Assembly: GCF_014205165.1 (NCBI RefSeq) | Contig: NZ_JACHMZ010000001.1 | Span: 4,570,501-4,634,500, forward strand | DNA: 64,000 nucleotides | From: Micromonospora carbonacea | GTDB taxonomy: Bacteria > Actinomycetota > Actinomycetes > Mycobacteriales > Micromonosporaceae | Reading direction: 5' to 3' | Part shown: piece after piece, positions 37,301 through 53,545 of the stretch | How the letters are laid out: each line of letters starts with the position of its first letter | Numbering within the stretch: the stretch's first letter is position 1 | Notes under the pieces: model-generated | What the model saw: only the letters and a program-made list of their open reading frames with translations | Database searches by the model: none | Told to the model about the DNA's origin: nothing | Made by a program: the position numbers and the translations under genes

Positions 37301-40300
37301 GCGGCCTCGGCGTCGGCTTCGGCGAGGGCCCGCACCTGGGGCAGCTCGGACAGCAGCGGGCTGGGCCGGGTGAGGGTGAACGCCGGGTGGAAGCGGCCCC
37401 AGTCGACGTCGGCGACGGTGACGCAGGGGGTGGGCCGGCGCACCGCCCGGTCGAGGGCGACGAGGGCGTGCTGCGGGTCGATGGTGGGCAGGCCCATCCG
37501 GTGCAGCGCCTCGGTGGCGGTGTTCTTGGCGGCCATGCCGTCGGCCCCGCCCCACGCGGTCCAGGACACGGCGGTGGCGGCGAGGCCCCGGTCGCGGCGG
37601 TGCACGGCGAGCGCGTCGAGCAGCGAGTTGCCGGCCCCGTACGCGCACTGGCCGGCGCTGCCCCACACGCCGGAGATGGAGGAGAACAGCAGGAACGCGG
37701 TCAGCGGTCGGTCGGCGAGGCAGTCGTGCAGGTTTAGCGCGCCGAGCACCTTGCCGGCGACGACGTGGGAGAACTCGTCGAGGGTGGTGCCGGTGAGCGG
37801 GGTGAGCTGGTCGGTGCCGGCGGCGTGCACGACGGCGGTCAGGTCGGGCAGCGTGTCCAGCAGCGCGGCGACGGCGTCCCGGTCGGTGACGTCGCAGGCG
37901 GCGGCGGTGACCCGCCCGTCGTCGGCGTACCCGTCGAGGAGCCCGGGGGTGGCGACGCCGCGCCGGCCGACGAGGACGACCCGGCGGGCCCCCTTGTCGA
38001 GCAGCCAGCGGGTGACGTGGCCGCCGAGCGCGCCGGTGCCACCGGTGACCAGGACGGTGCCGTCGGCCCACCAGTCGGTGGCGGGCCGGTCGGGGGCGGC
38101 GGCCGGGGCGAGCCGGCGGCCCCAGACTCCGCCGGGGCGCACGGCGACCTGGTCCTCGCCGCTGCCGCCGGCCAGGACGGCGGCGAGCCGGCGCAGCACG
38201 CTCTCGTCGGGGTGGGCCGGCACGTCGACGAGGCCGCCCCAGCGGTGCGGCTGCTCGACGGCGGCGGCCCGGCCGAGGCCCCACACGAGGGTCTGGAGGG
38301 GGTGGTCGACCCGGTCGGCGGGGCCGGCCTTGACGGCCCCGCTGGTGACGCACCAGACGGGCGCGGCGACGTCGAGGTCGGTGAGGGCCTGGAGCAGCAC
38401 GAGGGTGGTGGCGGCGGCGACGCTCGTGCCGGGGTGGGCGGGCAGCAGCGCGTCCTGGCCGGCGACGAGGTGCAGCACCCCGGCGACGGGCGCTTCGCCG
38501 ACGGCGGCGCGCAGCCGGTCGGCGAGCGCGGCCCGGTCGAGGTCGTCGGCTCCCACGCGCAGGGTCGCCGGTTCGTCGCCGCCGGCCCGCAGCAGGCCGG
38601 CGAGGCCGTCGGCCCAGGCGGGCGCGGCGTCGGCGGGCAGCACGAGCAGCCAGCGGCCCGCCGGCCGGTCACCCTCGGCGACCGGCACGGGCTTCCACAC
38701 CACCTGGTACGACCAGCCGTCCGCCACGCCCGAGTCGTGCCGGTCGCGTCGCCAGGCGGCGAGGACGGGCAGCGCGGGCAGCAGGGCGTCCACGGGGTCG
38801 GCGTCGCCGGCCGGGGCGCTGCCGAGCTGGTCGCGCAGGGCGTCGACGTCGGCCCGTTCGACGGCCGCCCAGAACGCGGCGTCGGCGGTGGACTCCGTGC
38901 CGGCGGGGGCGGGCGGGGCCGTCAGGTCGGGCCAGTAGCGCTCGCGGTGGAACGCGTATCCGGGCAGCCGGACGCGGCGGGGGTCGGCGCCGGCGAACAG
39001 TTCCCGCCAGCCGACGGGCACCCCGGCGACGTGCAGCTCGGCGAGCGCGGTGAGCAGGGACGCCGACTCGGGGCGGTCGCGGCGCAGCAGCGCCACGGCG
39101 GCGGTGGGGTCGGCGTCGGGCCCGAGGGTCTCCCGGGTCAGCGCGGTGAGCACCCCGCTGGGGCCGACCTCGAGGTACGTGCCGACGCCGTGGGCGCGCA
39201 GGGTGCGTACGCCGTCGGCGAAGCGGACGGCCTCGCGGACGTGCCGCACCCAGTAGTCCGGGGTACGGATCGCCGCCGGGTCGGCGAGGCCGCCGGTCAC
39301 GTTGGACACGATGGGCAGGGTCGGCGCGCGCAGGTCGAGCCCGGCGACGACGGCGGCGAACCCGGCGAGCATCGGCTCCATCAGCGGGCTGTGGAACGCG
39401 TGGCTGACCTTCAGCCGCTTGGCCTGCACACCGCGCCCGGTCCACAGGTCGGCGAGTTCGTCGATGGCGGCCTCGGCGCCGGCGACGACCACGGCGGCCG
39501 GGCCGTTGACGGCGGCGATCCCGACCGGGCCGGTCAGCCCGGCGAGGGACTCGACGACGGACGCCTCGTCGGCGGCGACCGCCAGCATCGCCCCGCCGGG
39601 CGGCAACGCCTGCATCAGCCGCCCCCGCGCCGCGACGAGCGCGCAGGCGTCGGCGAGGGTGAACACCCCGGCGACGTGCGCGGCGGTGATCTCGCCGATC
39701 GAGTGGCCGACCAGCACGTCGGGGGTGACGCCCCAGGACTCCAGCAGCCGGTGCAGGGCCACCTCGACGGCGAACAGCCCGGCCTGGGTGAACACCGTCT
39801 GGTCGAGCAGCGCGGCGTCGGGCGTGCCGGCCTCGGCGAACAGGACGGTCTTCAGCGGCTTCGGCAGCCGGGGGTCGAGATGCGCGCAGACCTCGTCGAG
39901 GGCGGCGGCGAACGCCGGGAACGCGGCGGCCAGCTCCCGGCCCATGCCGGCGCGCTGCGCGCCCTGCCCGGAGAACAGGAACGCGAGCTGCCCGCCGCGC
40001 GGCGCGCCGGTGACGAGGCCGGGGGCGGTGTCGCCGGCGGCGAGCGTACGCAGGTCGCGCAGCAGGCCGGCGCGGTCGGCGGCGAGGACGACGGCCCGGT
40101 GCTCCAGCGCGCCCCGGGTGGTGACCGACGACCAGCCGAGGTCGGTCAGCCGCGCCCCGGCACCGGTCCCAGGGTCGGCGGCTTCGGTGCCGGGGCCCGC
40201 GGCGTCGGCGTCGAGCCAGTCGGCCCAGCGGGCGGCCTGGGCGGGCAGCGCGGCGGCGTCCCGGGCGGACAGCAGCACCGGGACCAGGCCGGCGGTCGCC

Positions 40301-41772
40301 ACCGGGGCGGGGACGGCCGGGCGGGTCGCCGGGGCGGCCTCGGCGGGCGGGGTGCCGGGGGCCGCCGGGGCGGCGTCCGGCGTCTCCGCCGGGGCCTCCT
40401 CGATGATCACGTGGGCGTTGGTGCCGCTCATCCCGAAGGAGGAGACGCCCGCGCGGCGGGGCCGCTCCCCCGCCGGCCAGGGCTGCGCCTCGGTGAGCAG
40501 GGACACCGCGCCGGCCGCCCAGTCGACGTGCGGGGTCGGCTCGTCGACGTGCAGGGTGGCGGGAAGCTGGCCGTGGCGCAGCGCCAGCACCATCTTGATG
40601 ACCCCGGCGACGCCGGCGGCGGCCTGGGTGTGGCCGATGTTCGACTTGACCGAGCCGAGCCGCAGCGGCCGGTCCGCCGGGCGACCCTGCCCGTACGTGG
40701 CGAGCAGCGCGGTGGCCTCGATCGGGTCGCCGAGGCTGGTGCCGGTGCCGTGGGCCTCGACGGCGTCCACGTCGGCGGGGGTGAGCCGCGCGCCGGCCAG
40801 CGCCTGGAGCACCACCCGCTGCTGGGCGGGGCCGTTGGGGGCCGTCAGCCCGTTGGACGCGCCGTCCTGGTTGACGGCGGAGCCCCGCACCACGGCGAGG
40901 ACGGGGTGGCCGTTGCGACGGGCGTCGGACAGCCGCTCGACGAGGAGCACGCCGACGCCCTCGCCCCAGGCGGTGCCGTCGGCGGCCCCGGCGAACGCCT
41001 TGACCCGGCCGTCGACGGCGAGGCCGCGCTGCCGGGAGAAGCCGATGAACGCGGCCGGGGTGGACATGACGGTCGCGCCGCCGGCCAACGCGAGGGTGCA
41101 CTCCCCCTGCCGCAGGGCGTGGCAGGCCAGGTGCAGCGCCACCAGCGACGACGAGCAGGCGGTGTCGACGGAGACGGCGGGGCCCTCCACGCCGAGCACG
41201 TACGAGATCCGGCCGGAGACGACGCTGGCGGCGGTGCCGGTGAGGACGTACCCCTCGACGCCGGGCGGGGGCGACTGGAGCAGCGCCGCGTAGTCCTGGC
41301 CGGTGGTGCTGGCGAAGACGCCGACCTGGTGGCCGCGCAGCGTCGCCGGGTCGATGCCCGCGTGCTCGAACGCCTCCCAGGAGGTCTCCAGCAGCAGCCG
41401 CTGCTGCGGGTCCATGCCCAGCGCCTCGCGCGGGGAGATGCCGAAGAAGCCGGCGTCGAACTCGGTGGCCGAGTCGAGGAACCCGCCCTGCCCGACGTAC
41501 GAGGTGCCGGGGTGGTCGGGGTCGGGGTGGACGAGCCGGTCGACGTCCCAGCCCCGGTCGGCGGGGAAGTCGGAGATGGCGTCCCGGCCGTCGGCGACGA
41601 GCCGCCACAGGTCCTCGGGGGACCGCACGCCGCCCGGGAACCGGCAGCCGATACCGACGATGGCGATGGGCTCCCGGTGGGCCGCCTCCAGCTCCCCGAG
41701 TTTCCTCTTCGTCTGGTGAAGATCCGCGGTCACCCATTTCAGGTATTCCCGGAGAGTGTCCTCAGTCGCCAT
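31387..41772 (-). CDS. Type I modular polyketide synthase, two modules (KS-AT-KR-ACP / KS-AT-DH-KR-ACP)
   Basis: First gene of the leftward operon inside the window. ATG 41772 ([11 protein letters not shown]) has AAAGGTGG eight bases upstream and opens the docking helix; an in-frame ATG at 41799 lacks such a site. 3,461 aa. Module 1: KS Cys206, AT Ser691 (HAFH, malonyl), KR A1-type (Trp before Tyr1378, no LDD), ACP Ser1548. Module 2: KS Cys1771 with a shortened loop after DRGW, AT Ser2224 (YASH, methylmalonyl, in the identical tract), DH His2529 ([11 protein letters not shown]) and DAALH about 2706, KR about 3020-3220 with LDD (B-type) but His3170 where the catalytic Tyr belongs (GQANHAAAN), ACP Ser3339, then docking helices ending in IFHLLDDEL. 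There is no loading module, so synthesis starts on another protein. Confidence 0.97.
34490..35529 (-). repeat. Long identical tract, copy 2 (methylmalonyl AT)
   Basis: Partner of 9092-10131. It spans the AT of the second module of this PKS, including GHSQGE and YASH. Immediately right of 35529 (AT/KS linker) and left of 34490 (post-AT linker) the two genes differ. Confidence 0.9.
39180..39418 (-). repeat. Near-identical malonyl AT tract, copy 2
   Basis: Partner of 13821-14059, in the first module of this PKS, again centred on the HAFH region. Confidence 0.7.
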
Positions 41773-41879
41773 TAGCGCCACCTTTTCGGGCCGGAACAAA
41801 CAGGCGACCCAATACCGTCCACAGACGCCTCAAGCCGCGACACCAAGGCCCATCAAGCCCGACCACGAATTGCATTAAC

Positions 41880-41890: not shown

Positions 41891-41911
41891 ACCGCGCCCA
41901 CCAGGTCCTAC

Positions 41912-41928
41912 TTACCGGAGGAAGGTAA
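41912..41928 (+). promoter_or_regulatory. Hairpin with a Shine-Dalgarno loop
   Basis: TTACC (41912-41916) pairs with GGTAA (41924-41928), leaving GGAGGAA in the loop directly before an ATG at 41929. An anti-SD-complementary loop on a short stem would expose the ribosome site of the following ORF. Confidence 0.35.
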
Positions 41929-42438
41929 ATGTCGACCGGCGGCGGTCACAACCCCTACGGTGCCCCTAGGGTCGCCCCTACCAGAACCAGGCTCGGACCG
42001 GCCGCAGGCTGGGCCGGGGCCGCCCCGAGGGGGCCGCCGGGCGCGCGGGCGGGGGCGGTCCCGACGGGGGCGGCCACGGAGCGCCGTCGGCTTTCGGCCG
42101 CCCGGATCCCGGCCCGGGCGGCAGCCGGACGGGCACGCCCCCGATCGCGCCGTTCCGCCGATGTCGAACAATCGGCAGCCGGCCCCGGCAAGGAAACGTC
42201 AGGCCACCCATTGTCATTTTTCGTTTGCGGCGGGCCACGGCGCCCCGCGCCCCACCGGGCGGAGCTTCCCGGGGCCGACGCCGACGTCGGGTGGGGCATT
42301 GCGCGGGCCGGGGTCGCGGACGCCGCCGCCGGGGCCGGGACGCGGCACGAGCAGATCCGGCCCGCAATTCCCACCGTCAGGCATTGCGAATGCGGGCCGA
42401 AAGAGCACCCGAACGAAGTGCACAATATGAAACAATAA
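41929..42438 (+). CDS. Doubtful small ORF with a strong ribosome-binding site
   Basis: 169 codons from an ATG with an excellent GGAGGAAGG site. I recognise no family. The product (MSTGGGHNPYGAPRV...) is rich in Ala, Arg, Gly and Pro, has no membrane segment or known motif, and the region lacks the strong third-position G+C pattern of the neighbouring genes. The stop at 42436-42438 is followed at once by the CRP-like site. It may be a short leader peptide or noncoding sequence whose start region merely looks good. Confidence 0.2.
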   Translation: MSTGGGHNPYGAPRVAPTRTRLGPAAGWAGAAPRGPPGARAGAVPTGAATERRRLSAARIPARAAAGRARPRSRRSADVEQSAAGPGKETSGHPLSFFVCGGPRRPAPHRAELPGADADVGWGIARAGVADAAAGAGTRHEQIRPAIPTVRHCECGPKEHPNEVHNMKQ

Positions 42439-42454
42439 TGTGACCCACATCACG
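42439..42454. promoter_or_regulatory. CRP-like binding site (TGTGA-N6-TCACG)
   Basis: The half sites TGTGA (42439-42443) and TCACG (42450-42454) with a six-base spacer differ by one base from the CRP/FNR-family consensus TGTGA-N6-TCACA, which mycobacterial CRP also uses. The site lies in an A/T-rich patch between the divergent operons. Confidence 0.4.
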
Positions 42455-42583
42455 TTTAAAGCGAGAAAAGGCGTTATCCGCTCCCGCCCCGCCCGCTCGA
42501 TCCACCCCGGATAGCCGAGGTGGCAACGCACTCCGCAGTCAGCGCTGCACATCCCACCGCGGCTCGCCGAAACGAATTCGCCC

Positions 42584-42612
42584 TTGACGGATTCGCGGCA
42601 GCCCAGCAATGT
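42584..42612 (+). promoter_or_regulatory. Candidate rightward promoter for the sugar cassette
   Basis: TTGACG (42584-42589) and CAATGT (42607-42612) are separated by 17 bases, the best sigma-70-like pair I found upstream of the transketolase genes. It would give a leader of about 390 bases. Confidence 0.35.
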
Positions 42613-42654
42613 GACTGGAGGCGACAGCATTACCCCGAATTGGAGAAGTTGGCG

Positions 42655-42801
42655 ATGTCGACCGGTCGGCACACTGCCGGCGGGCGGACCGGCTCGGGGC
42701 CCTCCCGACCGTCGGCCGGCCGGCCCCCGCGGTCCGCCGGGCACGACCGCCGGGCCCCGCGCGAAGGCCCGTCCGGCGACGACCCGCACCTGCCCACCTG
42801 A
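42655..42801 (+). CDS. Doubtful 48-codon leader ORF
   Basis: Starts with ATG 42655 behind GGAGAAG, about 40 bases past the promoter candidate. The product (MSTGRHTAGGRTGSGPSRP...) is low-complexity and resembles nothing I know. Its first codons match those of the other doubtful ORF at 41929 (both begin MSTG). Possibly a translated leader, possibly chance. Confidence 0.15.
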   Translation: MSTGRHTAGGRTGSGPSRPSAGRPPRSAGHDRRAPREGPSGDDPHLPT

Positions 42802-43012
42802 GCCACCCGCCCACCCTGAGTTGCCCGACCGCCGGCGACCGCGCCACCGCGCCGACGCCCGCGATCCCGTGTGTGATCCGTCCCGCGCCGCTCGGCGCGT
42901 TCCTCCGCGATGCCCGAACGTCACCGTGTCGGCCCGCCTCGGCGGCCGACTCCGCCACGCGTATCAACCTGCCCGCAGCCATCGGGCCGGATCCTGACAG
43001 GAAGGCGCACGC

Positions 43013-43924
43013 ATGCAGCCCAGCATCAGCTATGCCACACCTGAGCCACCGCCGGACGACAGGCTCTCCCACCGGCGGGAGTCGCCCCTACCGACGCGGC
43101 TGGCCCGGACGGGACAACTGGCCGACCGCAGCCGCGCGGCGGTGCTGGAAATGATCTACCGCGCCGGCTCGGGACACGTCGGTTCCTCACTGTCCTGCGT
43201 CGACATCATCAGCGTGTTGCGATTCGACCAGATGAACTGGTCCGCGACGCGGTCCCGCAGCGAAAGCGACGTGTTCATCCTCTCCAAGGGCCACGCGGCC
43301 CCGGCCTGGTACGCCTCCCTCATGGTCGGCGGCGACCTGGGACCCGAGGAGGTCGGCACCCTGCGCCAGATCGACAGCCGGTTGCAGGGGCACCCGGACC
43401 GCACCCGGCTGGACCTCGTGGACCTCAGCACCGGCGCGCTCGGCCAGGGGCTCTCCGTGGCCGTCGGGCGGGCCCAGGCCAAGCGGCTGCGGGGCCGGGG
43501 CGACTTCGTGTACTGCCTGGCCGGCGACGGGGAGTTGCAGGAAGGCCAGATCTGGGAGGCGGTGACCGTGGCCGGCGCGCGTCGACTCGCCAACGTCGTG
43601 CTGGTCGTCGACCACAACGGCAGCCAGAACGACGGGCTGCTGTCCGAGATCATGCCGTTGGCCGGGCTGGCCGAGCGGTTCCGCGCCTTCGAGTGGCACG
43701 TCCAGGACGTCAACGGCCACTCCCACCTGTCGCTGATGGACGCCCTGGCCAACGCCCGCGACAACCAGGCGCAGCCCTCCGTGGTCATCGCGCGCACCCG
43801 CAAGGGGCATCTCGGGCCCGGGAGGATCGCGCTCAACGGATCACACAGCGCGACCCTCACCACGGAGGAGTACGAGTCGGCGATGCGCTACCTGGAGGGG
43901 AGGCGCGATGAAAGCCACCCGTGA
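43013..43924 (+). CDS. Transketolase, N-terminal (thiamine diphosphate) subunit
   Basis: With the next gene it should form a two-subunit, thiamine-diphosphate-dependent transketolase that moves a two-carbon ketol unit between sugar phosphates. 303 aa, about half a full transketolase, as usual for split enzymes. Visible motifs are GSGHVGSS (His55), SKGH (His94) and the cofactor motif GDGELQEGQ (171-179) followed by Asn202. ATG 43013 follows AGGAAGG at good spacing. It overlaps the C-terminal subunit by 17 bases, pointing to coupled translation and equal amounts. It is first in a nine-gene rightward operon. The location inside a PKS cluster points to a dedicated, not housekeeping, copy; that is inference, as is the acceptor substrate. 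Confidence 0.9.
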   Translation: MQPSISYATPEPPPDDRLSHRRESPLPTRLARTGQLADRSRAAVLEMIYRAGSGHVGSSLSCVDIISVLRFDQMNWSATRSRSESDVFILSKGHAAPAWYASLMVGGDLGPEEVGTLRQIDSRLQGHPDRTRLDLVDLSTGALGQGLSVAVGRAQAKRLRGRGDFVYCLAGDGELQEGQIWEAVTVAGARRLANVVLVVDHNGSQNDGLLSEIMPLAGLAERFRAFEWHVQDVNGHSHLSLMDALANARDNQAQPSVVIARTRKGHLGPGRIALNGSHSATLTTEEYESAMRYLEGRRDESHP

Positions 43925-44849
43925 CTGGTTCGGCGAGTCCCTGGCCGACCTCGCGGCCGAGCACGAGGACATCGTGGTGGTGAACTGCGACCTGGCCTCG
44001 GCCACCAAGACGGCCGCCTTCCGGGCGCGGTTCCCGCACCGGTTCTTCGAGGTCGGCATCGCCGAGGCCAACGCCGTGGGCGTCGCGGCCGGCCTGGCGC
44101 AGGAGGGCTTCCGGCCGTTCGTCGCGAGCTTCGGGCACTTCCTGACCGGGAAGTACCTGGAGATATTCCAGTCGGTGGGGCTCAACGACGCCGGCGTCGT
44201 GCTGGTCGGCACCCACGCCGGCCTGGCCATCGGCAAGGACGGGCCCACCCAGATGGGTCTGCGGGACGTCGCGCTGATGCGGACCCTGCCCAACGTGGAG
44301 ATCCTGCATCCCGTCGACGGTGTGGAGACCCGGGAGATGATGCGCCACGTCGTCGGCCACCGCCGGCCCACCTACCTTCGGCTCTGCCGCCAGCCGCAGC
44401 GCGAGGTGCACGACCCGCGGCACCGGTTCGTGCCCGGCGCGCCGGACGTCCTGCACGCGGGGCGCGACGTCGTCGTCTTCTCGATGGGCGGCACGGTGGG
44501 CGTGGTCCTGGACGCGCTGGACACCCTGGCCGCGCGGGGCATCACGCCGACCGTCGTGAACGTCTCCTCGTTGCCGGTCGACGCCGCGGCGCTGGGCGAC
44601 ATCGTCGACGCGCACCGACGGGTGTTCGTCATCGAGGACCACTACGTCCGGGGTGGGCTGGCCGACGAGGTCGCCCGGATCGTCCTCGACCGCGGGCACC
44701 GGGTCGCGTTCCGCGCCTGGGGTGTCCCCGACTACGGCCAGGCGGGCGACCCCCGCGACCTCTACGCCCGCTACCGGCTGGACCGCGACGGCGTGGTGCA
44801 CCACCTGACGAGCTTCGCCGACGCCGACCTGGCGACGGCCCCGCGATGA
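43908..44849 (+). CDS. Transketolase, C-terminal subunit
   Basis: Partner of the preceding gene; 313 aa with pyrimidine-binding and C-terminal transketolase domains. The catalytic Glu lies in EVGIAEAN (Glu53), and the substrate loop reads GKDGPTQMG, with Gln where E. coli transketolase has His, as in the animal-type enzymes. ATG 43908 has GGAGGGGAGG just upstream, inside the end of the first subunit gene. DXP synthase is less likely because the protein is split and the substrate loop is of transketolase type. Confidence 0.9.
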   Translation: MKATRDWFGESLADLAAEHEDIVVVNCDLASATKTAAFRARFPHRFFEVGIAEANAVGVAAGLAQEGFRPFVASFGHFLTGKYLEIFQSVGLNDAGVVLVGTHAGLAIGKDGPTQMGLRDVALMRTLPNVEILHPVDGVETREMMRHVVGHRRPTYLRLCRQPQREVHDPRHRFVPGAPDVLHAGRDVVVFSMGGTVGVVLDALDTLAARGITPTVVNVSSLPVDAAALGDIVDAHRRVFVIEDHYVRGGLADEVARIVLDRGHRVAFRAWGVPDYGQAGDPRDLYARYRLDRDGVVHHLTSFADADLATAPR

Positions 44850-44860
44850 GGAGGAACGTC

Positions 44861-45628
44861 TTGGAACAGCAGGTACGCAACAGCCGGGACCTGGTGGACG
44901 GGCTGGCCGACCGGCCGTATGTGTTCGTGGAGCACCGCCTCGGGGCCGGCGAGACGGTGGACTTCCGGTCGCATCCCCACGGCCACCGCAGCTTCGTGGT
45001 GGTCGCCGGCCGGGTGCGGGTCGAGCAGCGCTCCGGCAGCGGGTCGCCGCGCGAGTACGGCGCGCTCCGGGGATGGCACGCCCCGCCCGGTGCGGTGTAC
45101 CGGTTCACGCAGGTCGGCACGGTGCCGGCGATCGTCGTCGAGGCCGGCTCGGACCACGGGGACGCGGCCACCGGGGCCTCGGCGGTCACCGACTGCCTGG
45201 ACATCGACGACTACCTCGTGGAGAAGCCCTGGGGCCACGAGGTCTGGTACACCAACAACCTGCCCGGCGCGACGTACGCGCTGAAGCAGATCCACATGAC
45301 GGCGGGCCACCAGTCGTCGTTGCAGTCGCACCAGCGCAAGGTGGAGACGAACTACGTCGTCACCGGCGAGGCGGTCGTGCTCAACGGGACGCCCGCGCCG
45401 GCGGACCCAGGGGCGGTCGTCGACGCCGCGGCCATCCCCCGGGCCGGGCACGGACCGGGTTCGAGTTGGACGTCGGACGCCAACGTCCTGCACCGGGTCA
45501 TCGCGGACACCGACTACACCTCGGTCGAGGTCTCGACCACCGAGCTGGACGACGTGATCAGGTGGGCCGACGACACCAACCGGGGAAACGGCCGGATCGA
45601 CGCGGAGCACCTGGGGCGGGCCCGGTGA
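44861..45628 (+). CDS. Two-cupin protein related to type II mannose-6-phosphate isomerase
   Basis: Predicted metal-dependent sugar-phosphate isomerase or epimerase. It has two cupin folds. The first is about residues 20-100 (SHPHGHRSFVVVAGRVRVEQ). The second is about 120-250 and begins EKPWGHEVWY, the signature of the cupin part of ManC/type II phosphomannose isomerases, followed by AGHQSSLQSHQRKVE with probable metal ligands (Gln, His, Glu). No nucleotidyltransferase domain is attached, so isomerisation, not GDP-sugar synthesis, is expected. I chose TTG 44861 because GAGGAGG lies six bases upstream; ATG 44846, overlapping the previous stop, is in frame but has no such site. The stop overlaps the next start (GTGA). 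The substrate is unknown. Confidence 0.75.
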   Translation: MEQQVRNSRDLVDGLADRPYVFVEHRLGAGETVDFRSHPHGHRSFVVVAGRVRVEQRSGSGSPREYGALRGWHAPPGAVYRFTQVGTVPAIVVEAGSDHGDAATGASAVTDCLDIDDYLVEKPWGHEVWYTNNLPGATYALKQIHMTAGHQSSLQSHQRKVETNYVVTGEAVVLNGTPAPADPGAVVDAAAIPRAGHGPGSSWTSDANVLHRVIADTDYTSVEVSTTELDDVIRWADDTNRGNGRIDAEHLGRAR

Positions 45629-46290
45629 GCGCCGCCGACCTGGTGGGGCTCTACCTCGCCGAGAAGATCGCGATCTGCGAGCAGTTCCCCGTCGCGTCGG
45701 TGGCGGCGCTGGCGGAGATGCTGTTCGACACCTACGAGGCCGGCGGCACCGTCTACGCCATGGCCAACGGCGGCAACTCGGGGACCCTCGACCACGCCTA
45801 CTGCGACTTCAAGCACCACCCCTTCGTCTCGGAGGACAAGTCCCGTCCGCTGCCGCGGTCGGTGAAACGACTGTCGTTCGTGAACCTGTGCGGCTCGCCG
45901 GCGGAGCTGACCGGCCTGGTGAACGACCTGGGCCCGGACGAGATGTACGTGGCGTCGCTGGAGCCGGTGGTGACCCGCGACGACCTGGTGATGGCCTACT
46001 CCGGCAGCGGCAACTCGCCGAACGTGGTCCGCGCGCTGGAGGTCGCCGGGCAGGCGGGCGCCAGGACGTTCGCCATGACGAAGGGCGACGGGGGCCGCTG
46101 CCGCGCCCTCGCCGACGTCTGCATCGTCGTGCCCGGGTCGTCGCGGTTCCCGGGACAGACCGGTAGCAACAACAACAACTTTCACTTTGAGGACGCTATG
46201 CTGTCACTCAATCACATCCTGGTCGGCCTGTTGAAGCAACGCGTGGCGGAGCGCCTCGCCCGCCTCCCCTCCGGAGTCGCCTCATCCTGA
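45625..46290 (+). CDS. SIS-domain phosphosugar isomerase, GmhA-like
   Basis: 221 aa with one SIS fold of the sedoheptulose-7-phosphate isomerase (GmhA) type: ANGGNSGTLDHAYCDF near residue 45, YSGSGNSPNV near residue 128, and a C-terminal helix NNFHFEDAMLSLNHIL at the place of GmhA catalytic residues. Family members convert keto- to aldo-sugar phosphates such as sedoheptulose-7-phosphate to a heptose phosphate. Beside a transketolase, which can make or consume sedoheptulose-7-phosphate, a heptose or similar branch is plausible. Other SIS enzymes of this type, such as LmbN of lincomycin, use octuloses. The GTG start overlaps the upstream stop by four bases (GTGA), so translation is coupled. Confidence 0.82.
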   Translation: MSAADLVGLYLAEKIAICEQFPVASVAALAEMLFDTYEAGGTVYAMANGGNSGTLDHAYCDFKHHPFVSEDKSRPLPRSVKRLSFVNLCGSPAELTGLVNDLGPDEMYVASLEPVVTRDDLVMAYSGSGNSPNVVRALEVAGQAGARTFAMTKGDGGRCRALADVCIVVPGSSRFPGQTGSNNNNFHFEDAMLSLNHILVGLLKQRVAERLARLPSGVASS

Positions 46291-46345
46291 GCCGGCTGCC
46301 CGTGAGCGACAGGCGCGCACGCCGAGCGACGAGGAGGCGACCCCG

Positions 46346-47431
46346 GTGATCGTTACGCAGCCACGGACCGCGGAGGCCCGGGACAGCACCCGGCTGACCG
46401 TCACCTACTTCCTGGGCTACGGCCTGGTCGGCCTGCTCTCGGCGGTCCTCGGCCCGTCGATGCAGACCTTCCTGGCCATGACCGGGTCCCCGCTGCGCAC
46501 ACTGGCCATCCTGTTCACCGCCGACGCCTTCGGCTCGGTGTGCGGCTCCCTCATCGCCGGGCGGCTGCTCAACCGGATCGGGACGCACGTGCAGGTGGCG
46601 GTGGGGCTGGTCGCGGTCGCGGTGGTCCTCGCCGCGATCCCGCTGCTGCGGTGGCCCGTCGCGCTCGCGGTCCTGTTCTGGGCGCTGGGGCTGGCGAAGA
46701 CGTTCGTCTTCGTCACGGTCAACACGCTCCTGCTGTGGGTGCGGCGGGCGAAGGTGGGCCCGTTCATCAACGCGGCCGACTTCTTCCTCGGCGCGGGGTC
46801 GCTGGTCATGCCGCTGATGATCGGCCTGTCGATCACCTGGACCGGCGACGTCCGCCTCGCCTACTGGCTGGTCTGCGGGTGCGCGGTCGCGTTGACGCTG
46901 TGGGTCCTGCGGACCCGCGCGCCCCGCCCGGAGTCCGAGCAGCGGGGCAGGGGCGGCGGCCGGCACTACCTGATGATCGGCGGCGTGGCGGTCCTGCTGT
47001 TCCTCTACGTCGGCGCGGAGATCAGCATCTCGGGTTGGCTCCCCTCGTTCGTCCTGCTCCGGGGGCTGACCGACGACGCCGCCACCGCCGCGTACTTCAC
47101 CTCGCTGTTCTGGGTCGCGGTCACGGTCGGACGTCTGCTGTGGGTGCCGTTCGCCCAGCGGCTCCGTCCCGCGGTGATCGTGGCGTCGAGCGCGGCGGTC
47201 TGCGCGCTGGCCGTCGCCCTCATCGTCAACAACGCCTCGTCGGTGGCGGTCGTGACCGCCGGCGTGGTCACCGTCGGGCTCGGCATGTCGTCGATCTTCC
47301 CGTCGGCCTTCGCGATGCTCGCCCGCCGGGTGGAGATGACCGGCATGGTCAGCGGCGTCTGCCTGTGCGCGGCGAGCCTCGGCGCCATGTTCTTCCCCTG
47401 GTTGGCCGGGCAGGCGCTGACCACTCCATGA
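46346..47431 (+). CDS. MFS transporter
   Basis: Integral membrane permease, 361 aa, with hydrophobic segments throughout (for example LVGLLSAVLGPSMQTFLA near the N-terminus and SSVAVVTAGVVTVGLGMSSI near the C-terminus) and a central basic, Arg/Gly-rich loop about residues 192-210 between two six-helix halves. The overall look is of the fucose-permease/FucP-like branch of MFS. It is a little short at the C-terminus. GTG 46346 is preceded by GAGGAGG. In this setting it may export the finished compound or a glycosylated, inactive form, or import a sugar; the sequence does not decide. Confidence 0.85.
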   Translation: MIVTQPRTAEARDSTRLTVTYFLGYGLVGLLSAVLGPSMQTFLAMTGSPLRTLAILFTADAFGSVCGSLIAGRLLNRIGTHVQVAVGLVAVAVVLAAIPLLRWPVALAVLFWALGLAKTFVFVTVNTLLLWVRRAKVGPFINAADFFLGAGSLVMPLMIGLSITWTGDVRLAYWLVCGCAVALTLWVLRTRAPRPESEQRGRGGGRHYLMIGGVAVLLFLYVGAEISISGWLPSFVLLRGLTDDAATAAYFTSLFWVAVTVGRLLWVPFAQRLRPAVIVASSAAVCALAVALIVNNASSVAVVTAGVVTVGLGMSSIFPSAFAMLARRVEMTGMVSGVCLCAASLGAMFFPWLAGQALTTP

Positions 47432-47470
47432 CCCGCACATTCCCGAAGATCGGCAGAACGGAGGCGGCAG

Positions 47471-48874
47471 GTGCTCAGCATTCAACAGCCAGACCCCCGA
47501 CCGGTGCTCCCCCGACTGGAGGCGCTGCTCGGCCCGGACCGCGCCGACGCGCTGCGGCGGGCGGCCGCCCGGATCCGGGACCGGCTGGCCGGCGGCACCC
47601 TCTGGCACGTCAACTCCACCGGGGCCGGCGGGGGCGTCGCCGAGACCCTCCAGATGGCCCTTCCCCTCTACCGGGACCTCGGCGTCTCGGCGACCTGGGC
47701 GGTGATCAACGGCGACGCCGACTTCTTCACGATCACCAAGCGGCTCGGGGTGGCCCTCTACGGCAGCCCGGGTGACGGCGGTCCCCTCGGGCCGGCCGAG
47801 CGGGGGCTCTACCTGCGGACGCTGGCCTCGGCCCGGGACGACCTGCTGTCGCGGGTCCGGCCCGGCGACATCGTGATCCTGCACGACCACCAGGCGGCCG
47901 GCCTGGCCGAACCGCTGCTGGACCGGGTCGGCGCGGTCTACTGGCGCTGCTACGTCGGCGTCGACGCGCCGACCGAGGCGTCCGAGGCGGCCTGGGACTT
48001 CCTCACGCCGCTGCTGACCGGCGTACGCGAGCTGATCTTCTGCGCGGACACGCTCGTGCCCGACCGGTTCGCGGCCCGCCCGGTCCGGATCCGGCCGCTG
48101 TTCACGTCGCCGTTCACCGCGAAGAACTGCGAGCTCGACGCCGCCACCGTCGAGCACCTGCTGGCCCGGTGCGGCCTGCATCCGGAGCACGAGGCGCCCG
48201 GCCCGGCGACGCTGCGCACGCCGGTCGGCGAGGTCGGCATCCGGCGACCGCCCCAGGTGATCGCGCAGGAGCGGCCCCGCCCCGGTCAGCCCCTCGTCAC
48301 CCAGGTCTCCCGGTGGGACCGCCTCAAGGACATGCACGGGGTCCTGGACGGCGTCACCTCCCACGTGGACGACGGCTACCTCGCGCTCGTCGGGCCGGAC
48401 ACCGCCGCCATCCCCGACGACATCGAACAGCAGGTCTGGTACGACCGCTGCGTCGAGGCGTGGCGGGCGCTGCCGCCGCGCCAGCGCGCACGGGTGGCGC
48501 TGGTCTGCCTGCCGATGGCGGACCTCACGGAGAACGCCCTGCTGGTCAACGCGATCCAGCGCGCGTCGGACGTGGTGGTGCAGAAGAGCCTCGCCGAGGG
48601 GTTCGGCCTGACGGTCACCGAGGCGATGTGGAAGTCACGGGTGGTGGTGGCGAGCGCCGTCGGCGGCATCCGGACGCAGATCACCGACCAGCTCGACGGC
48701 CTGCTGGTGGACGACCCGACGGACCTGGCGGCCTTCGGCCGGATCCTGCGCCGAGCGGTCGGACGGGAGGTGGACACGCAGATCCTCGGCAAGCGGGCGC
48801 ACGACAAGGTAAGGGCCGAGTTCCTTCCCGACGGGGAGGTCCTCTCGACCGCGACCATGATCGACGAACTGTGA
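47471..48874 (+). CDS. GT4-family glycosyltransferase, TreT (trehalose synthase)-like
   Basis: 467 aa with two Rossmann halves. The N-terminus has LWHVNSTGAGGGVAE (about 43-57), the hallmark of TreT-like transferases. The C-terminal half has KSLAEGFGLTVTEAMW with the GT4 E-x7-E pair (about 376-384), the NDP-sugar site. TreT couples NDP-glucose with glucose. Here the likely role is transfer of a sugar to the polyketide or to the sugar made by this operon. Known macrolide glycosyltransferases are mostly GT1, so this would be atypical. GTG 47471 has GGAGG upstream. It is 39 bp after the permease, so it is in the operon. Confidence 0.8.
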   Translation: MLSIQQPDPRPVLPRLEALLGPDRADALRRAAARIRDRLAGGTLWHVNSTGAGGGVAETLQMALPLYRDLGVSATWAVINGDADFFTITKRLGVALYGSPGDGGPLGPAERGLYLRTLASARDDLLSRVRPGDIVILHDHQAAGLAEPLLDRVGAVYWRCYVGVDAPTEASEAAWDFLTPLLTGVRELIFCADTLVPDRFAARPVRIRPLFTSPFTAKNCELDAATVEHLLARCGLHPEHEAPGPATLRTPVGEVGIRRPPQVIAQERPRPGQPLVTQVSRWDRLKDMHGVLDGVTSHVDDGYLALVGPDTAAIPDDIEQQVWYDRCVEAWRALPPRQRARVALVCLPMADLTENALLVNAIQRASDVVVQKSLAEGFGLTVTEAMWKSRVVVASAVGGIRTQITDQLDGLLVDDPTDLAAFGRILRRAVGREVDTQILGKRAHDKVRAEFLPDGEVLSTATMIDEL

Positions 48875-48888
48875 AAGGCGGTGACCCC

Positions 48889-49719
48889 GTGCGAGACACC
48901 GGAACCGGGCGGCTCGACCCCGATCAGGTGGAGTTCTTCAGGTCGAACGGCTACGTCGTCGGCGACGACCTGCTGAAGCCCGCCGCCTTCGCCGGCCTCC
49001 GCGAGCACTTCGAACGCAAGTTCGCGGCCCTGCCGGCGGACGAACGCCCCGAGGACATGGACGTCCCCCACTTCACCGACCCGGAGCTGTTCCGCTGGCT
49101 CCTCGACCCCGACGTGCTGGACGTCGCCGAGAGCATCCTCGGGCCGGACATCGCGCTCTTCTCGGCCCACTTCTTCTGCAAGCCCGCCGGCGACGGCAAA
49201 GGCGTGCCCTGGCACACGGACGCGTGGTTCTGGCGGGAGACGATCCACCCGCCGGAGCAGGCCGTCACCATCTGGCTGGCGATCGACCCGTCCACCGCCG
49301 AGAACGGCAACATGGTGGTGATCCCGGGCAGCCACCGGCAGCAGGCGGACGGGCCGTACCGGGAGGTGCGCTCCGAGGAGAGCGTGTTCACCTGGGAGCT
49401 GGACGTGTCGAAGATGCCGGTCGACACGGACCGGGCGGTGCCGATCCCGCTGCGGCCCAACCAGTTCAGCATCCACTCGGGCGGCCTGCTGCACAGCAGC
49501 GCGGTCAACCGCAGCACGATCCGCCGCTGCGGCTTCACCATGCGCTACATGAGCACGGCCGTGCGCTTCAACCACGAGGGGGTCGGCCACAAGCACCAGA
49601 TCTTCCTCGCCCGGGGCGAGGACCGGGCCGGCAACGTGTACGCGCAGCCCTGGCGGGCGTACCCCGAACTCGTCGACGCCCGCGGCAAGGGCCAGCGCGT
49701 GGTGACCGCGGACCGGTGA
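48889..49719 (+). CDS. Phytanoyl-CoA dioxygenase (PhyH) family oxygenase
   Basis: 276 aa, a non-haem iron and 2-oxoglutarate-dependent oxygenase by family. The iron ligands are visible: His109 and Asp111 in WHTDAW, and the distal His202 in LLHSSAVNRS, followed by Arg residues for 2-oxoglutarate. These enzymes hydroxylate or desaturate natural products and sugars. I place the start at GTG 48889, with AAAGGCGG upstream; GTG 48871 is in frame but overlaps the previous stop. The end overlaps the next gene by four bases. The substrate could be the sugar or the polyketide. Confidence 0.87.
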   Translation: MRDTGTGRLDPDQVEFFRSNGYVVGDDLLKPAAFAGLREHFERKFAALPADERPEDMDVPHFTDPELFRWLLDPDVLDVAESILGPDIALFSAHFFCKPAGDGKGVPWHTDAWFWRETIHPPEQAVTIWLAIDPSTAENGNMVVIPGSHRQQADGPYREVRSEESVFTWELDVSKMPVDTDRAVPIPLRPNQFSIHSGGLLHSSAVNRSTIRRCGFTMRYMSTAVRFNHEGVGHKHQIFLARGEDRAGNVYAQPWRAYPELVDARGKGQRVVTADR

Positions 49720-50420
49720 GGACCCCCGACCTGGTGCTCGACGTGGGCGGCGGCGACCCGGTGCGGCTGCGGTGCGCCGCCGTCCTGTTCGACATGGACG
49801 GCACGCTGGTCGACTCCCACGCCTGCGTCGAGTGGAAGTGGCGCACCTGGTGCGCCGGGCACGGCATCGACGCCGACGCGCTGCTGGCGGTCGCCCACGG
49901 CCGCCCCCAGGCGGAGACGGTGCGCATCGTCGCGCCGGAGCTGGACACCGAGCGGGAACTCGACCACCTGACCCGCCTGGAGGAGGGCTGCACGACGGGC
50001 ATCGTCGAGGTGCCGGGGGCGTCCGCGCTGCTCGACGCGCTGCCGGCCGGGACGTGGGCGGTGGTCACCTCGGCGTGGCGTCGCCTCATGGCGATCAGGA
50101 TGGGCTGCGCCGGCCTGCCCCTGCCGGCGGTGACCGTCACCGCCGACGACCCGGTGGACGGCAAGCCGTCGCCGCACGGCTACCTGTCCGCCGCGGCCCG
50201 GCTGGGGGTGCGCCCCGCGGACTGTGTGGTCGTGGAGGACACGCCGGTGGGCCTGGCGGCCGGGCAGGCGGCCGGCATGCGCACCATCGCGCTGGCCACG
50301 ACCTTCCCGGCCGACCGGCTCCCCGCCGGGCTCGTCGTGCCCGACCTCACGCAGGTCCGCCTGCACCGGCCGGGAGGCGGCGGGCCGTCCCCCGCCACCG
50401 GCCCCGACCGAAAGGAATGA
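49716..50420 (+). CDS. HAD-superfamily sugar phosphatase
   Basis: 234 aa, beta-phosphoglucomutase/phosphatase-like HAD hydrolase. Motif I is FDMDGTLVDS (Asp26, Asp28), motif II VVTSAW, motif III Lys in DGKPSPHGY, motif IV VVEDTPVGL. The cap inserted after motif I is the small helical type of sugar phosphatases. Likely role: remove phosphate from the sugar phosphate made by the transketolase and isomerases. GTG 49716 overlaps the PhyH stop (GTGA). A diverged fragment of this gene is present at 56093-56129. Confidence 0.85.
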   Translation: MRTPDLVLDVGGGDPVRLRCAAVLFDMDGTLVDSHACVEWKWRTWCAGHGIDADALLAVAHGRPQAETVRIVAPELDTERELDHLTRLEEGCTTGIVEVPGASALLDALPAGTWAVVTSAWRRLMAIRMGCAGLPLPAVTVTADDPVDGKPSPHGYLSAAARLGVRPADCVVVEDTPVGLAAGQAAGMRTIALATTFPADRLPAGLVVPDLTQVRLHRPGGGGPSPATGPDRKE

Positions 50421-50422
50421 GA

Positions 50423-51403
50423 ATGGAGTACGTCAAGCTGGGCGCGACCGGCCTGGACGTGTCGCCGCTCTGCCTCGGCGGCATGAGCTTCGGCGACCCG
50501 GCCAGGGGCGGCGACCCGTGGACCCTCGACGAGGACGGCAGCCGCGACATCGTCCGGCGCGCCCTGGACCACGGCATCAACTTCTTCGACACGGCGAACG
50601 CCTACTCCGACGGCAGCGGCGAGGAGATCCTGGGCCGGCTGCTGCGGCAGTTCGCCCGCCGGGACGAGGTGGTCGTGGCGACCAAGGTCTTCCTGCCCAT
50701 GCGGCCGGGGCCCAACGGCTCCGGCCTGTCCCGCAAGGCCATCCTCGCCGAGGTCGACAACAGCCTGCGGCGGTTGGGCCTGGACCACGTCGACCTCTAC
50801 CAGGTCCACCGCTGGGACCACCGCACGCCGATCGAGGAGACGCTGGAGGCCCTGCACGACGTGGTCAGGGCCGGGAAGGTCCGCTACCTCGGCGCGTCGT
50901 CCATGTACGCGTGGCAGTTCGGCAAGGCCCTGCACACCGCGCGGCTGCACGGCTGGACGCCCTTCGTCAGCATGCAGAACTACTACAACCTCATGTACCG
51001 GGAGGAGGAGCGGGAGATGCTGCCGCTCTGCGCGGACCAGGGCATCGGGGTGCTGCCGTGGAGCCCGCTGGCGCGGGGCAAGCTCGCGCGGGAGTGGACG
51101 GTGGAGACCACCCGCGCCCGGCACGACGACTTCGGCCGCAGCCTCTACGCCGCCACCGAGAGCGCCGACCGCCGGGTGGTGGAGCGGGTCGGTGAGATCG
51201 CCGCCGAACTCTGCGTGACCCGGGCGCAGGTGGCCCTGGCGTGGCTGCGGCGGCAGCCGGCGGTGACCGCCCCCGTCATCGGGGTCACCTCCGTCAAGCA
51301 CCTCGACGAGACGGTGGCCTCCCTGGACGTGACGCTCTCCGACGACGACCTGTGGAGGCTGGCGGAGCCGTACGTCCCGCACGCGGTCGTCGGGCACGAG
51401 TGA
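50423..51403 (+). CDS. Aldo-keto reductase
   Basis: 326 aa, NADPH-dependent reductase with the full tetrad: Asp56 and Tyr61 (FFDTANAYSDG), Lys88 (VATK) and His129 (YQVHRWD), plus the C-terminal NADPH-binding stretch APVIGVTSVKHLDE. It probably reduces the aldehyde or ketone of the sugar made by this operon, possibly to a deoxysugar or polyol. ATG 50423 is preferred because AAAGGA lies seven bases upstream; ATG 50417 is too close to that site. It is the last gene of the rightward operon. Confidence 0.88.
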   Translation: MEYVKLGATGLDVSPLCLGGMSFGDPARGGDPWTLDEDGSRDIVRRALDHGINFFDTANAYSDGSGEEILGRLLRQFARRDEVVVATKVFLPMRPGPNGSGLSRKAILAEVDNSLRRLGLDHVDLYQVHRWDHRTPIEETLEALHDVVRAGKVRYLGASSMYAWQFGKALHTARLHGWTPFVSMQNYYNLMYREEEREMLPLCADQGIGVLPWSPLARGKLAREWTVETTRARHDDFGRSLYAATESADRRVVERVGEIAAELCVTRAQVALAWLRRQPAVTAPVIGVTSVKHLDETVASLDVTLSDDDLWRLAEPYVPHAVVGHE

Positions 51404-51469
51404 CCCGCCGGGCCGCCGCCGGGCCGGCTCGCGGCCCGCTCCGGCACGCTTCGCACTCCGCCCGACGCT

Positions 51470-51488
51470 CCGGGCACGGGCTGCCCGG
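51470..51488. terminator. Hairpin between converging genes
   Basis: CCGGGCA (51470-51476) pairs with TGCCCGG (51482-51488) over a five-base loop, midway between the aldo-keto reductase stop and the converging XRE gene. No T-run follows, which is common for actinobacterial terminators. It could serve both strands. Confidence 0.5.
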
Positions 51489-51492
51489 CCCG

Positions 51493-52713
51493 TCACCCGA
51501 CCCCGAGGGCCGTGGCGAGCCGGGCCACGTCCGCCGGGAGCGGTTCGTGGCACGTCAGGTCGGTGAGCAGCGTACGGGCCACCGGCCGTAACCGGACCTC
51601 GGCCGGCGCGGTCCGGTCCGCGTCGACCAGGGCGCGCCCGGCGGCGAGCGGGTCGCCGGCCCCGAGGTGCGCGCGGCCGGCGTCGAGCAGGTAGGCCGCC
51701 CGGTGCTCGGCGGGCAGCCGCCGCCAGTGCTCCGCGCCGACGACCCGCTCGTGCAGGAGCACCGCCTCGCCGCCGTTGCCCAGCTCGACGGCGGCGGCGA
51801 CCCGGGCCATCCGCACCGCCGTGGGGCCGAACCCGGTCCAGTGCCGGTCGCGCTCCCCGCCGGTCTCGCCGCTCTCGCCTGTCTCGTCGGCGACCCGGGC
51901 CGCCTGGTCGACCAGTTCCGCTGCGCCGCGTTCGTCGCCGGCTCCGGCGGCGGCCAGGGCGGCCTGGACCAGCAGCGTTCCGTGCAGCGCCAGGTCCGGG
52001 GGTGGGCCGCCGCGCCACGCCTCGGGGGCGATGCGGTGCGCGGCGGCGACCGTGACGGCCAGGGCCGGGCGGGGGCGGCCGAGGGCGCGCAGCGCCTGCC
52101 CCAGCGGCACGGCTGCCGCCGCGACCAGCAGCGGGTCGCCGGCGGCCACGGACACGGCCCGGTCGGCGGCCAGCCAGCCGAGGTCGCCCACGCCGAGCTT
52201 CACCAGCACCGCCGACGTGACCCGGTACGCCTGCACCAGCGGTTCCGCAGCCCCGTCGCCCTGGGCGGCGTGGGCGTGTCGGGTGTCGCCGAGCAGCTCC
52301 GGCAGGATCCGCAGCAGTTGGGGATAGTCGGCGTGCTGGTAGGTCAGCCAGGCGTGCCGTACCCGCTGGTCCAGCTCGCCGACCGGCGGTGCCGCCCGCT
52401 GCGCCTGCGGCCCGGTCAGGGCGGTGTCGTAGCGGTCGAGGGCGGCGCGCACCCCGTCGATGCCGTGCGCGGCGGCGCGGGCGGCCTGCGACGGGAGGGC
52501 ATCGCGGCCGAGCAGCGCCACCGGGTCGACGCGCAGCGCGGCGGCGAGTTCCTGGATGACGGTGTACCGGTCGAGGGCGCGGACCCCCCGCTCGACCTTG
52601 TCGACCCAGCTCTTCGACTTGCCGAGCCGGTCGGCGAGCATCTGCTGCGTCATTCGCCGCCGGGTCCGCAGCCGGGCGACCCGGCGTCCGATCGGCAGCT
52701 CACGGTTGGTCAC
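51493..52713 (-). CDS. XRE-family transcriptional regulator with a TPR-like C-terminal domain
   Basis: 406 aa. Helix-turn-helix at about residues 8-65 (RTRRRMTQQMLADRLGKSKS ... VERG); the rest is Ala/Leu-rich helical repeat sequence like the TPR sensor parts of many actinobacterial XRE proteins. It binds DNA and may sense a ligand or peptide. GTG 52713 overlaps the end of the upstream gene by 14 bases, so it is third in a leftward operon with the Cys-rich and DivIVA-like genes. Whether it controls the PKS cluster cannot be told from sequence. Confidence 0.88.
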   Translation of the reverse strand: MTNRELPIGRRVARLRTRRRMTQQMLADRLGKSKSWVDKVERGVRALDRYTVIQELAAALRVDPVALLGRDALPSQAARAAAHGIDGVRAALDRYDTALTGPQAQRAAPPVGELDQRVRHAWLTYQHADYPQLLRILPELLGDTRHAHAAQGDGAAEPLVQAYRVTSAVLVKLGVGDLGWLAADRAVSVAAGDPLLVAAAAVPLGQALRALGRPRPALAVTVAAAHRIAPEAWRGGPPPDLALHGTLLVQAALAAAGAGDERGAAELVDQAARVADETGESGETGGERDRHWTGFGPTAVRMARVAAAVELGNGGEAVLLHERVVGAEHWRRLPAEHRAAYLLDAGRAHLGAGDPLAAGRALVDADRTAPAEVRLRPVARTLLTDLTCHEPLPADVARLATALGVG

Positions 52714-53402: not shown

Positions 53403-53471
53403 GTGACTCCGTCCCTGGCTGTTGACATCGTGCCTTGCCGGCCGCGTCTCGAAACCAACATACGTCATGAC

Positions 53472-53500: not shown

Positions 53501-53545
53501 TGATCTTGTGGTGAGTGAGGACCTTGCCGACCTAAACTTCCCCTC

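What the first reader, a model, noticed from the sequence alone, without database searches (positions are those of the whole stretch)
43013..51403. Sugar-phosphate cassette without NDP-sugar genes in a PKS cluster
Nine rightward genes with overlaps or short gaps combine a split transketolase, a two-cupin isomerase, a GmhA-like SIS isomerase, a permease, a TreT-like glycosyltransferase, a PhyH oxygenase, a HAD phosphatase and an aldo-keto reductase. PKS clusters usually make sugars through NDP-4-keto-6-deoxy routes, and none of those genes is here. The set suggests ketol transfer on pentose-phosphate intermediates, keto/aldo isomerisation, dephosphorylation, reduction and oxidation to a heptose, branched sugar or polyol. 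I do not know a described pathway with exactly this set.
Basis: partly seen in the sequence, partly recalled or inferred. Interest (0 to 1): 0.8.

Follow-up and report, generated by a model that had tools for sequence, protein, structure and literature searches.

The report
Mobile sugar cassette inside quinolidomicin cluster
A self-contained nine-gene set, probably for an unusual trehalose-like sugar, sits as an insertion between two genes of a giant antibiotic-type factory in a Micromonospora-type bacterium, and some relatives carry nearly the same sugar genes away from any such factory.

Summary
The nine genes are real and at the stated places. The interpretation needs moving. The giant PKS on both sides looks like a quinolidomicin (qnm) cluster orthologue. 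Of 25 other Micromonospora loci with the orthologous PKS gene, 0 show the cassette in the DNA fetched; in 20 the two PKS genes lie within 1 kb, in 5 other DNA sits there. One relative (G275) shows a near-exact empty site, so the cassette is best read as an insertion of about 9.5 kb (41969-51469), not as the quinolidomicin sugar pathway. Nearly the same genes form a stand-alone locus with a LacI regulator and an MFS gene in four genomes, with no KS match in the 40 kb read. Split transketolase, bicupin, SIS protein and a trehalose-forming type of glycosyltransferase (TreT-like in 6, GT20 in 5) occur together in 11 of 11 loci, all found through the bicupin. Best reading: a transferable module that builds an aldose phosphate by ketol transfer and isomerisation and caps its anomeric carbon as a 1,1-linked glucoside. 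Substrates, product and step order are inferred. My paper searches brought up no description of this gene set.

The parts
41969..51469 (.). inserted segment (about 9.5 kb), not seen at the orthologous junction in 25 other Micromonospora loci
   Evidence: L073 aligns to 53777-51470 (91%) and then 41968-40910 (94%) with 14 unmatched bases between; junction survey
43013..43924 (+). split transketolase, N-terminal (ThDP-binding) chain
   Evidence: PF00456 8.6e-43; best solved relative is the N chain of the Carboxydothermus split transketolase, 8.8e-50
43908..44849 (+). split transketolase, C-terminal chain; phosphate-site Ser replaced by Ala
   Evidence: PF02779/PF02780; 6yaj 6.3e-56; residues
44846..45628 (+). 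bicupin with a phosphomannose-isomerase-like ligand set in the C-terminal barrel
   Evidence: PF01050, PF07883; Q160, H162, E167, H216 invariant in 34 of 34 rows; fold
45625..46290 (+). SIS-domain protein, GmhA-like but below the gmhA cut-off and with an inserted loop
   Evidence: NCBIfam gmhA 58 bits against 209.45; PDB phosphoheptose isomerases; alignment
46346..47431 (+). MFS transporter, presumed exporter; not detectably alike to the MFS of the stand-alone loci
   Evidence: PF07690 1.6e-22
47471..48874 (+). TreT-like glycosyltransferase (trehalose synthase type)
   Evidence: PF21269 1.1e-31; 6zj4 3.8e-48 and 2x6q 8e-44
48871..49719 (+). PhyH-family oxygenase (HxD motif seen by eye)
   Evidence: PF05721 2.1e-28; PDB 6zyk 9.2e-17, EvdO2 4xab 4.1e-9 and others
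49716..50420 (+). HAD phosphatase, sugar-phosphatase type
   Evidence: PF00702 2e-17; NCBIfam PRK11587 sugar phosphatase 150.9 bits against a cut-off of 282
50423..51403 (+). aldo-keto reductase
   Evidence: PF00248 7.6e-77
31387..41799 (-). flanking qnm-type PKS gene; not part of the cassette
   Evidence: motif scan; 25 orthologues at 80-98% in the N-terminal 105 aa
51493..52713 (-). HTH regulator next to the insertion; belongs to the junction in some strains, not to the cassette
   Evidence: found upstream of the PKS gene without the cassette in L073, L080, L087

Best explanation
The cassette is a self-contained, horizontally spread pathway for an unusual sugar metabolite that was inserted at a gene junction of a quinolidomicin-type PKS cluster. 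It is not needed for that macrolide. Likely steps, in order: (1) the split transketolase moves a C2 ketol unit from a phosphoketose of central metabolism to an aldehyde acceptor, giving a ketose phosphate; (2) the GmhA-like SIS protein and the PMI-like bicupin interconvert this ketose with one or two aldose phosphates, epimeric at C2; (3) the HAD phosphatase removes the phosphate; (4) the TreT-like transferase joins the anomeric carbon of the free aldose to glucose from a cellular nucleotide sugar, giving a non-reducing 1,1-linked (trehalose-like) disaccharide; in relatives a GT20 (trehalose-6-phosphate-synthase type) enzyme may do this on the phosphate; (5) the PhyH oxygenase and the aldo-keto reductase adjust oxidation states; (6) the MFS protein exports the product. 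Shown: gene content, families, absence from the orthologous junctions, near-same gene set elsewhere without PKS, conserved core. Inferred: every reaction, their order, chain length and product.
For: Insertion: empty site in L073 at 91-94% identity; 0 of 25 orthologous junctions show the cassette, 20 of 25 have the PKS genes within 1 kb; of the 25 genomes only G297 has the SIS gene at all, in another place. Independence: the genes lie in a LacI-MFS-AKR-tkN-tkC-cupin-SIS-GT-PhyH-HAD locus in G277, G296 and G084, and in G227 without a detected HAD gene; no match to a KS-containing query in the 40 kb read in each, about 14-16 kb either side of the locus. Core: tkN, tkC, bicupin and SIS together in 11 of 11 loci including the window, with a TreT-like GT in 6 and a GT20 in 5. 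Biosynthetic use: KASIII-like and one-module PKS genes in L025, L026, L027, L029, NRPS/PKS genes in L028, NRPS-like genes in G297. Chemistry: transketolase catalytic and ThDP residues kept; bicupin Gln/His/Glu/His 34 of 34; TreT relatives in PDB. The genome has other long transketolase-like frames (671 and 744 aa), so the cassette pair looks dedicated.
Against: No substrate or product is known. The 11 loci were all found through the bicupin, so the count does not show how often the other genes occur without it. PhyH and AKR relatives were found in only 5 of 11 loci and HAD in 4 of 11, each count including the window; the Pseudonocardia locus has a TreT-like GT but no matching HAD within the roughly 10 kb held on either side, which does not fit the phosphatase-before-TreT idea. 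The GmhA catalytic Glu65 column is Val in 13 of 13 family members compared and the His180 column is Ser in 2 of 13. In G277 an ABC transporter with a Peripla_BP_2 binding protein lies a few kb downstream. TreT enzymes can also run in the degrading direction (recalled), so a catabolic role is not excluded. The insertion could have been kept because it decorates the macrolide.
Confidence: 0.5

Rival explanations
1. The cassette decorates the quinolidomicin-type macrolide: it makes a sugar or 1,1-linked disaccharide that is attached to the polyketide in this strain.
For: It sits between two PKS genes of the cluster; relatives of the core lie beside other PKS or NRPS genes in six loci.
Against: 0 of 25 orthologous junctions show it; stand-alone loci without a KS match have nearly the same eight enzymes; a trehalose-type GT would close the anomeric carbon that a macrolide glycoside needs (inference).
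Confidence: 0.2
2. The split transketolase works like Rif15 of rifamycin: it transfers a C2 ketol unit to the quinone of the macrolide.
For: Rif15 is a two-subunit transketolase of a PKS cluster that acts on the C-4 keto group of rifamycin S (PMC6002545, passages); quinolidomicin has a quinone moiety (PMC9054317, passage).
Against: The same transketolase chains lie with bicupin and SIS in 11 of 11 loci, four of them without a KS match; sugar-phosphate residues Arg318 and Arg474 (human numbering, roles recalled) are kept in 11 of 11, though a phosphoketose donor alone would explain that. The cassette sequences were not compared with Rif15 itself.
Confidence: 0.07
3. A catabolic locus: the genes break down a 1,1-linked disaccharide or related sugar.
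For: LacI-type regulator and MFS in the stand-alone loci; an ABC transporter near the G277 locus; TreT reactions are reversible (recalled).
Against: No kinase and no ABC importer among the nine genes; a phosphatase and an oxygenase fit synthesis better; the core lies beside KASIII/PKS or NRPS genes in six of the ten relatives.
Confidence: 0.12
4. The core makes an ordinary compound such as trehalose or a heptose phosphate and the extra isomerases only feed flux.
For: SIS is nearest to phosphoheptose isomerases, the GT to trehalose synthase.
Against: Trehalose needs no transketolase or isomerases; Ser345 to Ala in 11 of 11 transketolases suggests an altered substrate; SIS scores far below the gmhA cut-off.
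Confidence: 0.11

Closest known systems
Quinolidomicin biosynthetic cluster (qnm, M. chalcea AK-AN57; orthologues in many Micromonospora)
   Same: The flanking PKS genes: order, AT/DH/ER pattern by motif scan, a terminal thioesterase-like stretch (by eye), and DegT- and DHQ-synthase-family genes to the right
   Different: The nine-gene cassette was not seen at the orthologous junction in 25 of 25 other loci; the reference cluster itself was not compared by sequence
Rif15a/Rif15b two-subunit transketolase of rifamycin
   Same: Split transketolase in an actinobacterial PKS cluster
   Different: Here with bicupin and SIS in all 11 loci, four of them without a KS match; no P450 in the cassette
GmhA phosphoheptose isomerase and the octose steps of lincosamides (LmbR/LmbN, recalled)
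   Same: C-C bond formation on sugar phosphates, SIS isomerisation and a HAD phosphatase
   Different: No kinase and no nucleotidyltransferase among the nine genes; a trehalose-type GT ends the route; SIS below the gmhA cut-off
TreT / GT20 trehalose and pseudo-trehalose enzymes (TreT, OtsA, VldE; roles recalled)
   Same: Same transferase families, expected 1,1 coupling
   Different: Found with a transketolase, bicupin and SIS set that I know from none of these systems (recalled)
Orthosomycin PhyH oxygenases (EvdO2)
   Same: PhyH oxygenase; PDB match 4.1e-9
   Different: Single oxygenase, not the best PDB match (6zyk, 9.2e-17, is), no oligosaccharide cluster

Membership tests
Quinolidomicin BGC (flanking PKS) | PKS gene order and domain pattern as in published tables | tested here: met
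   Regex motif scan: 32 KS motifs and an order that fits the table passages of PMC8698034 and PMC9967187; approximate, compared by eye
Quinolidomicin BGC (flanking PKS) | AHBA-type starter supply genes | tested here: inconclusive
   DegT aminotransferase, DHQ-synthase and FAD monooxygenase families present; AHBA function not tested, feature recalled
Quinolidomicin BGC (cassette as a member) | cassette present in orthologous clusters | tested here: not met
   0 of 25 junctions in the DNA fetched
Transketolase | ThDP-binding and catalytic residues | tested here: met
   H37, H77, H110, D155, N185, E366, H416, D424 (human numbering, roles recalled) kept in 11 of 11
Transketolase | complete phosphate site Arg318/Ser345/Arg474 | tested here: not met
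   Ser345 is Ala in 11 of 11, both Arg kept
Rif15-like tailoring transketolase | acts on a quinone polyketide | not testable with these tools
   needs an assay; Rif15 sequences were not compared
GmhA phosphoheptose isomerase | NCBIfam equivalog cut-off | tested here: not met
   58 bits against 209.45
GmhA phosphoheptose isomerase | catalytic Glu65 and His180 (recalled) | tested here: inconclusive
   Glu65 column is Val in 13 of 13 with Glu or Asp two places on; His180 kept in 11 of 13
Phosphomannose-isomerase-type cupin | Gln/His/Glu/His metal ligands (recalled) | tested here: met
   34 of 34 invariant; geometry not measured
TreT trehalose synthase | NCBIfam TreT equivalog cut-off | tested here: not met
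   175.9 bits against 775; the Pfam TreT_GT1 domain is met
NDP-4-keto-6-deoxy sugar pathway | nucleotidyltransferase and 4,6-dehydratase in the cassette | tested here: not met
   none of nine proteins

The most novel reading that the evidence does not exclude
A transferable five-gene module (split transketolase, PMI-like bicupin, GmhA-like SIS protein, and either a TreT-like or a GT20 transferase) makes a new class of 1,1-linked pseudo-trehaloses whose second sugar is built by ketol transfer. Different bacteria plug it into polyketide, NRPS or stand-alone pathways, and here it has been inserted inside a quinolidomicin-type cluster.
Probability: 0.35. Interest if true: 0.75.

Novelty: new variant of a known kind. 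Interest (0 to 1): 0.5.

Why it matters
If right, natural-product sugars have a portable route that builds the sugar without activating it: it is made by ketol transfer and isomerisation and capped by a trehalose-type enzyme. Such loci lack the usual NDP-sugar genes and may go unnoticed in cluster searches. The case also shows that a giant PKS cluster can take up an unrelated gene set at a gene junction without loss of the PKS genes on either side, which warns against assigning genes to a product because they lie between PKS genes.

Tried and rejected
Rejected: cassette as the quinolidomicin sugar pathway (junction survey); canonical GmhA or TreT membership (cut-offs); plain Rif15 analogue (synteny). 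Led nowhere: single-sequence scan of genome contigs with the bicupin found nothing, the alignment scan gave five loci; an order-level search found SIS in 2 of 348 genomes, both already known; the class-level search with the bicupin profile gave 28 of 394 genomes, the window and 27 weak matches that cover only the C-terminal part, and the seven of those 27 whose surroundings I fetched had no SIS or transketolase match. Foldseek of the bicupin gave only generic bicupins and other cupins in the 50 rows shown, and a profile search of PDB only weak oxalate decarboxylases. No convincing repeats at the insertion edges. Paper searches listed no paper that describes this gene set; several lists were cut (for example 15 of 277), the library is open access only, and the quinolidomicin cluster paper (Org. 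Lett. 2018) was not read: I know it from citing passages.

Limits: around the stand-alone loci ten proteins were annotated (seven of G277, three of G084); that no PKS is there rests on no match to one KS-containing query. PKS domains were found by regular expressions and ORFs in flanks by a home-made GC-frame method. L073 is cut by a contig end and L087 does not reach the upstream PKS gene, so for these two the absence of the cassette holds for the DNA fetched; the genus search for SIS found none in either genome. Functions of family members, motif residues and enzyme directions marked as recalled come from no call.
Full report
Observation. Family assignments hold. The cupin model matches bicupins.

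What surrounds it. The window lies on a single-contig 7.53 Mb genome. PKS genes run on the minus strand from about -39 kb to 41799 and again from 56705 to about 150 kb in window coordinates. I counted 32 KS motifs. The order and AT/DH/ER pattern, from 134782-150036 down to a thioesterase-like stretch (seen by eye) at -39048, fits the published tables for quinolidomicin-cluster orthologues, including the lack of one module (PMC8698034, passages and one section; PMC9967187, passages). DegT-aminotransferase, DHQ-synthase and FAD-monooxygenase family genes lie in the right-hand part, as an AHBA-type starter would need (recalled). Quinolidomicins are 60-membered macrolides with a quinone from 34 modules (PMC9054317, passage). 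In the published ORF numbering of two strains there is a jump at this same junction (1-1081 to 1-1091; 8-137 to 8-146), so other genes may sit there too.

The cassette looks like an insertion. I searched 160 Micromonospora genomes with the first 105 residues of the PKS gene that starts at 41799. Besides the window's own gene, 25 genomes have a match at 80-98% identity. I fetched the upstream side of all 25. In 20 the preceding PKS gene ends within 1 kb. In 5 (G275, G319, G045, G330, G327) other DNA lies there, in three of them including the HTH gene that the window has at 51493-52713. None shows the cassette, and only one of the 25 genomes (G297) has the SIS gene at all, in another place. G275 is limited by a contig end, but its DNA passes from the equivalent of 51470 (91% identity) to that of 41968 (94%) with 14 unmatched bases. 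So 41969-51469 is absent there. The segment has lower GC (72.4%) than the PKS gene beside it (77.0%), but a stretch of G277 has 71.6%, so GC says little.

The same genes elsewhere. In the family the bicupin is in 6 of 300 genomes including the window's. SIS is in 5 of 160 Micromonospora genomes, the same five of that genus in which the bicupin was found. In G277, G296 and G084 all eight enzymes lie together with a LacI regulator and another MFS gene; in G227 the HAD gene was not found. No KS match was found in the 40 kb read in each of these four. G297 has tkN, tkC, bicupin, SIS and a GT20 in a cluster with condensation, adenylation, carrier-protein, PLP-decarboxylase, AurF-like and Asn-synthase genes. 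In public genomes, three Actinoallomurus loci and one Actinomadura locus have two KASIII-like genes, a one-module type I PKS, tkN, tkC, GT20, bicupin and SIS; a Pseudonocardia locus has tkN, tkC, bicupin, SIS, a TreT-like GT and NRPS/PKS genes. So tkN, tkC, bicupin, SIS and one of two trehalose-forming transferase types occur together in 11 of 11 loci. All were found through the bicupin, so this is a conditional count. PhyH and AKR relatives are in 5 of 11 and HAD in 4 of 11, the window included.

How it may work. The transketolase keeps its catalytic residues; one phosphate-site Ser (345, human numbering) is Ala in 11 of 11, while both Arg are kept. Because the donor phosphate uses the same site, this cannot separate donor from acceptor. 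The C-terminal barrel of the bicupin has Gln160, His162, Glu167 and His216 in 34 of 34, the set known for metal-dependent phosphomannose isomerases (recalled). The SIS relatives listed are 62-79% identical, apart from the window's own group at 99%, and include a Sedimenticola and marine metagenome entries; the protein scores well below the gmhA cut-off and has an inserted loop. I made no tree. TreT enzymes join an NDP-glucose to a free aldose and GT20 enzymes join it to a 6-phosphate (recalled). In agreement, the HAD gene is in the window and three of the four stand-alone loci, which have TreT-like GTs, and no relative of it was found in the five GT20 loci. Against this, the Pseudonocardia locus has a TreT-like GT and no such HAD in the 20.7 kb held. 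The simplest route is ketol transfer, aldose formation by two isomerases, dephosphorylation and 1,1 coupling to glucose, followed by hydroxylation or reduction. Chain length (pentose to octose) is open.

The sugar-phosphate logic stands; the assignment to the PKS product does not. Among ten flank proteins scanned, two are of sugar type: a UDPGT-like gene at -42441 to -41014 and a GDP_Man_Dehyd/Epimerase family gene at 168117-169115. Whether they belong to the cluster was not tested, and the other flank genes were not scanned.

Print. Rif15 was the only split transketolase of a comparable cluster that my searches brought up (passages read); that paper itself cites two further reports of transketolases in natural product biosynthesis, which I did not read. 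No listed paper describes this gene set.

Noticed in passing
window 41799-56705: The junction between these two qnm-type PKS genes carries other DNA in 5 of 25 other strains (HTH regulators, an N6 methyltransferase in L080, an EryCIII/Glyco_transf_28-like gene in L087), so it may be an insertion hot spot.
   Followed up: partly
window 51493-53777: HTH regulator, two small genes and a GntR-like HTH (53546-53770); HTH and small genes are shared with G275, G319 and G330 at this junction, and a like block lies on another contig in G264 (L103).
   Followed up: partly
L025, L026, L027, L029: Actinoallomurus/Actinomadura loci with two KASIII-like genes, a one-module PKS, split transketolase, GT20, bicupin and SIS; they might make aryl esters of a trehalose-like sugar (inference).
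   Followed up: partly
L021/L022 (G297): NRPS-like cluster with PLP decarboxylase, AurF-like oxygenase, Asn synthase, APH-type kinase, GT20 and the core sugar genes; the same genome also has a qnm-type junction without the cassette (L078).
   Followed up: no
P0215, P0210, P0234: SIS relatives at 63-68% identity in Sedimenticola and marine metagenomes; their neighbours were not read.
   Followed up: no
L137-L143: Proteins alike to the C-terminal half of the bicupin in seven genomes without a SIS or transketolase match near by.
   Followed up: partly
L029:14401-15885: Type 2A encapsulin shell gene (SrpI-like) about 3 kb from the SIS gene.
   Followed up: no
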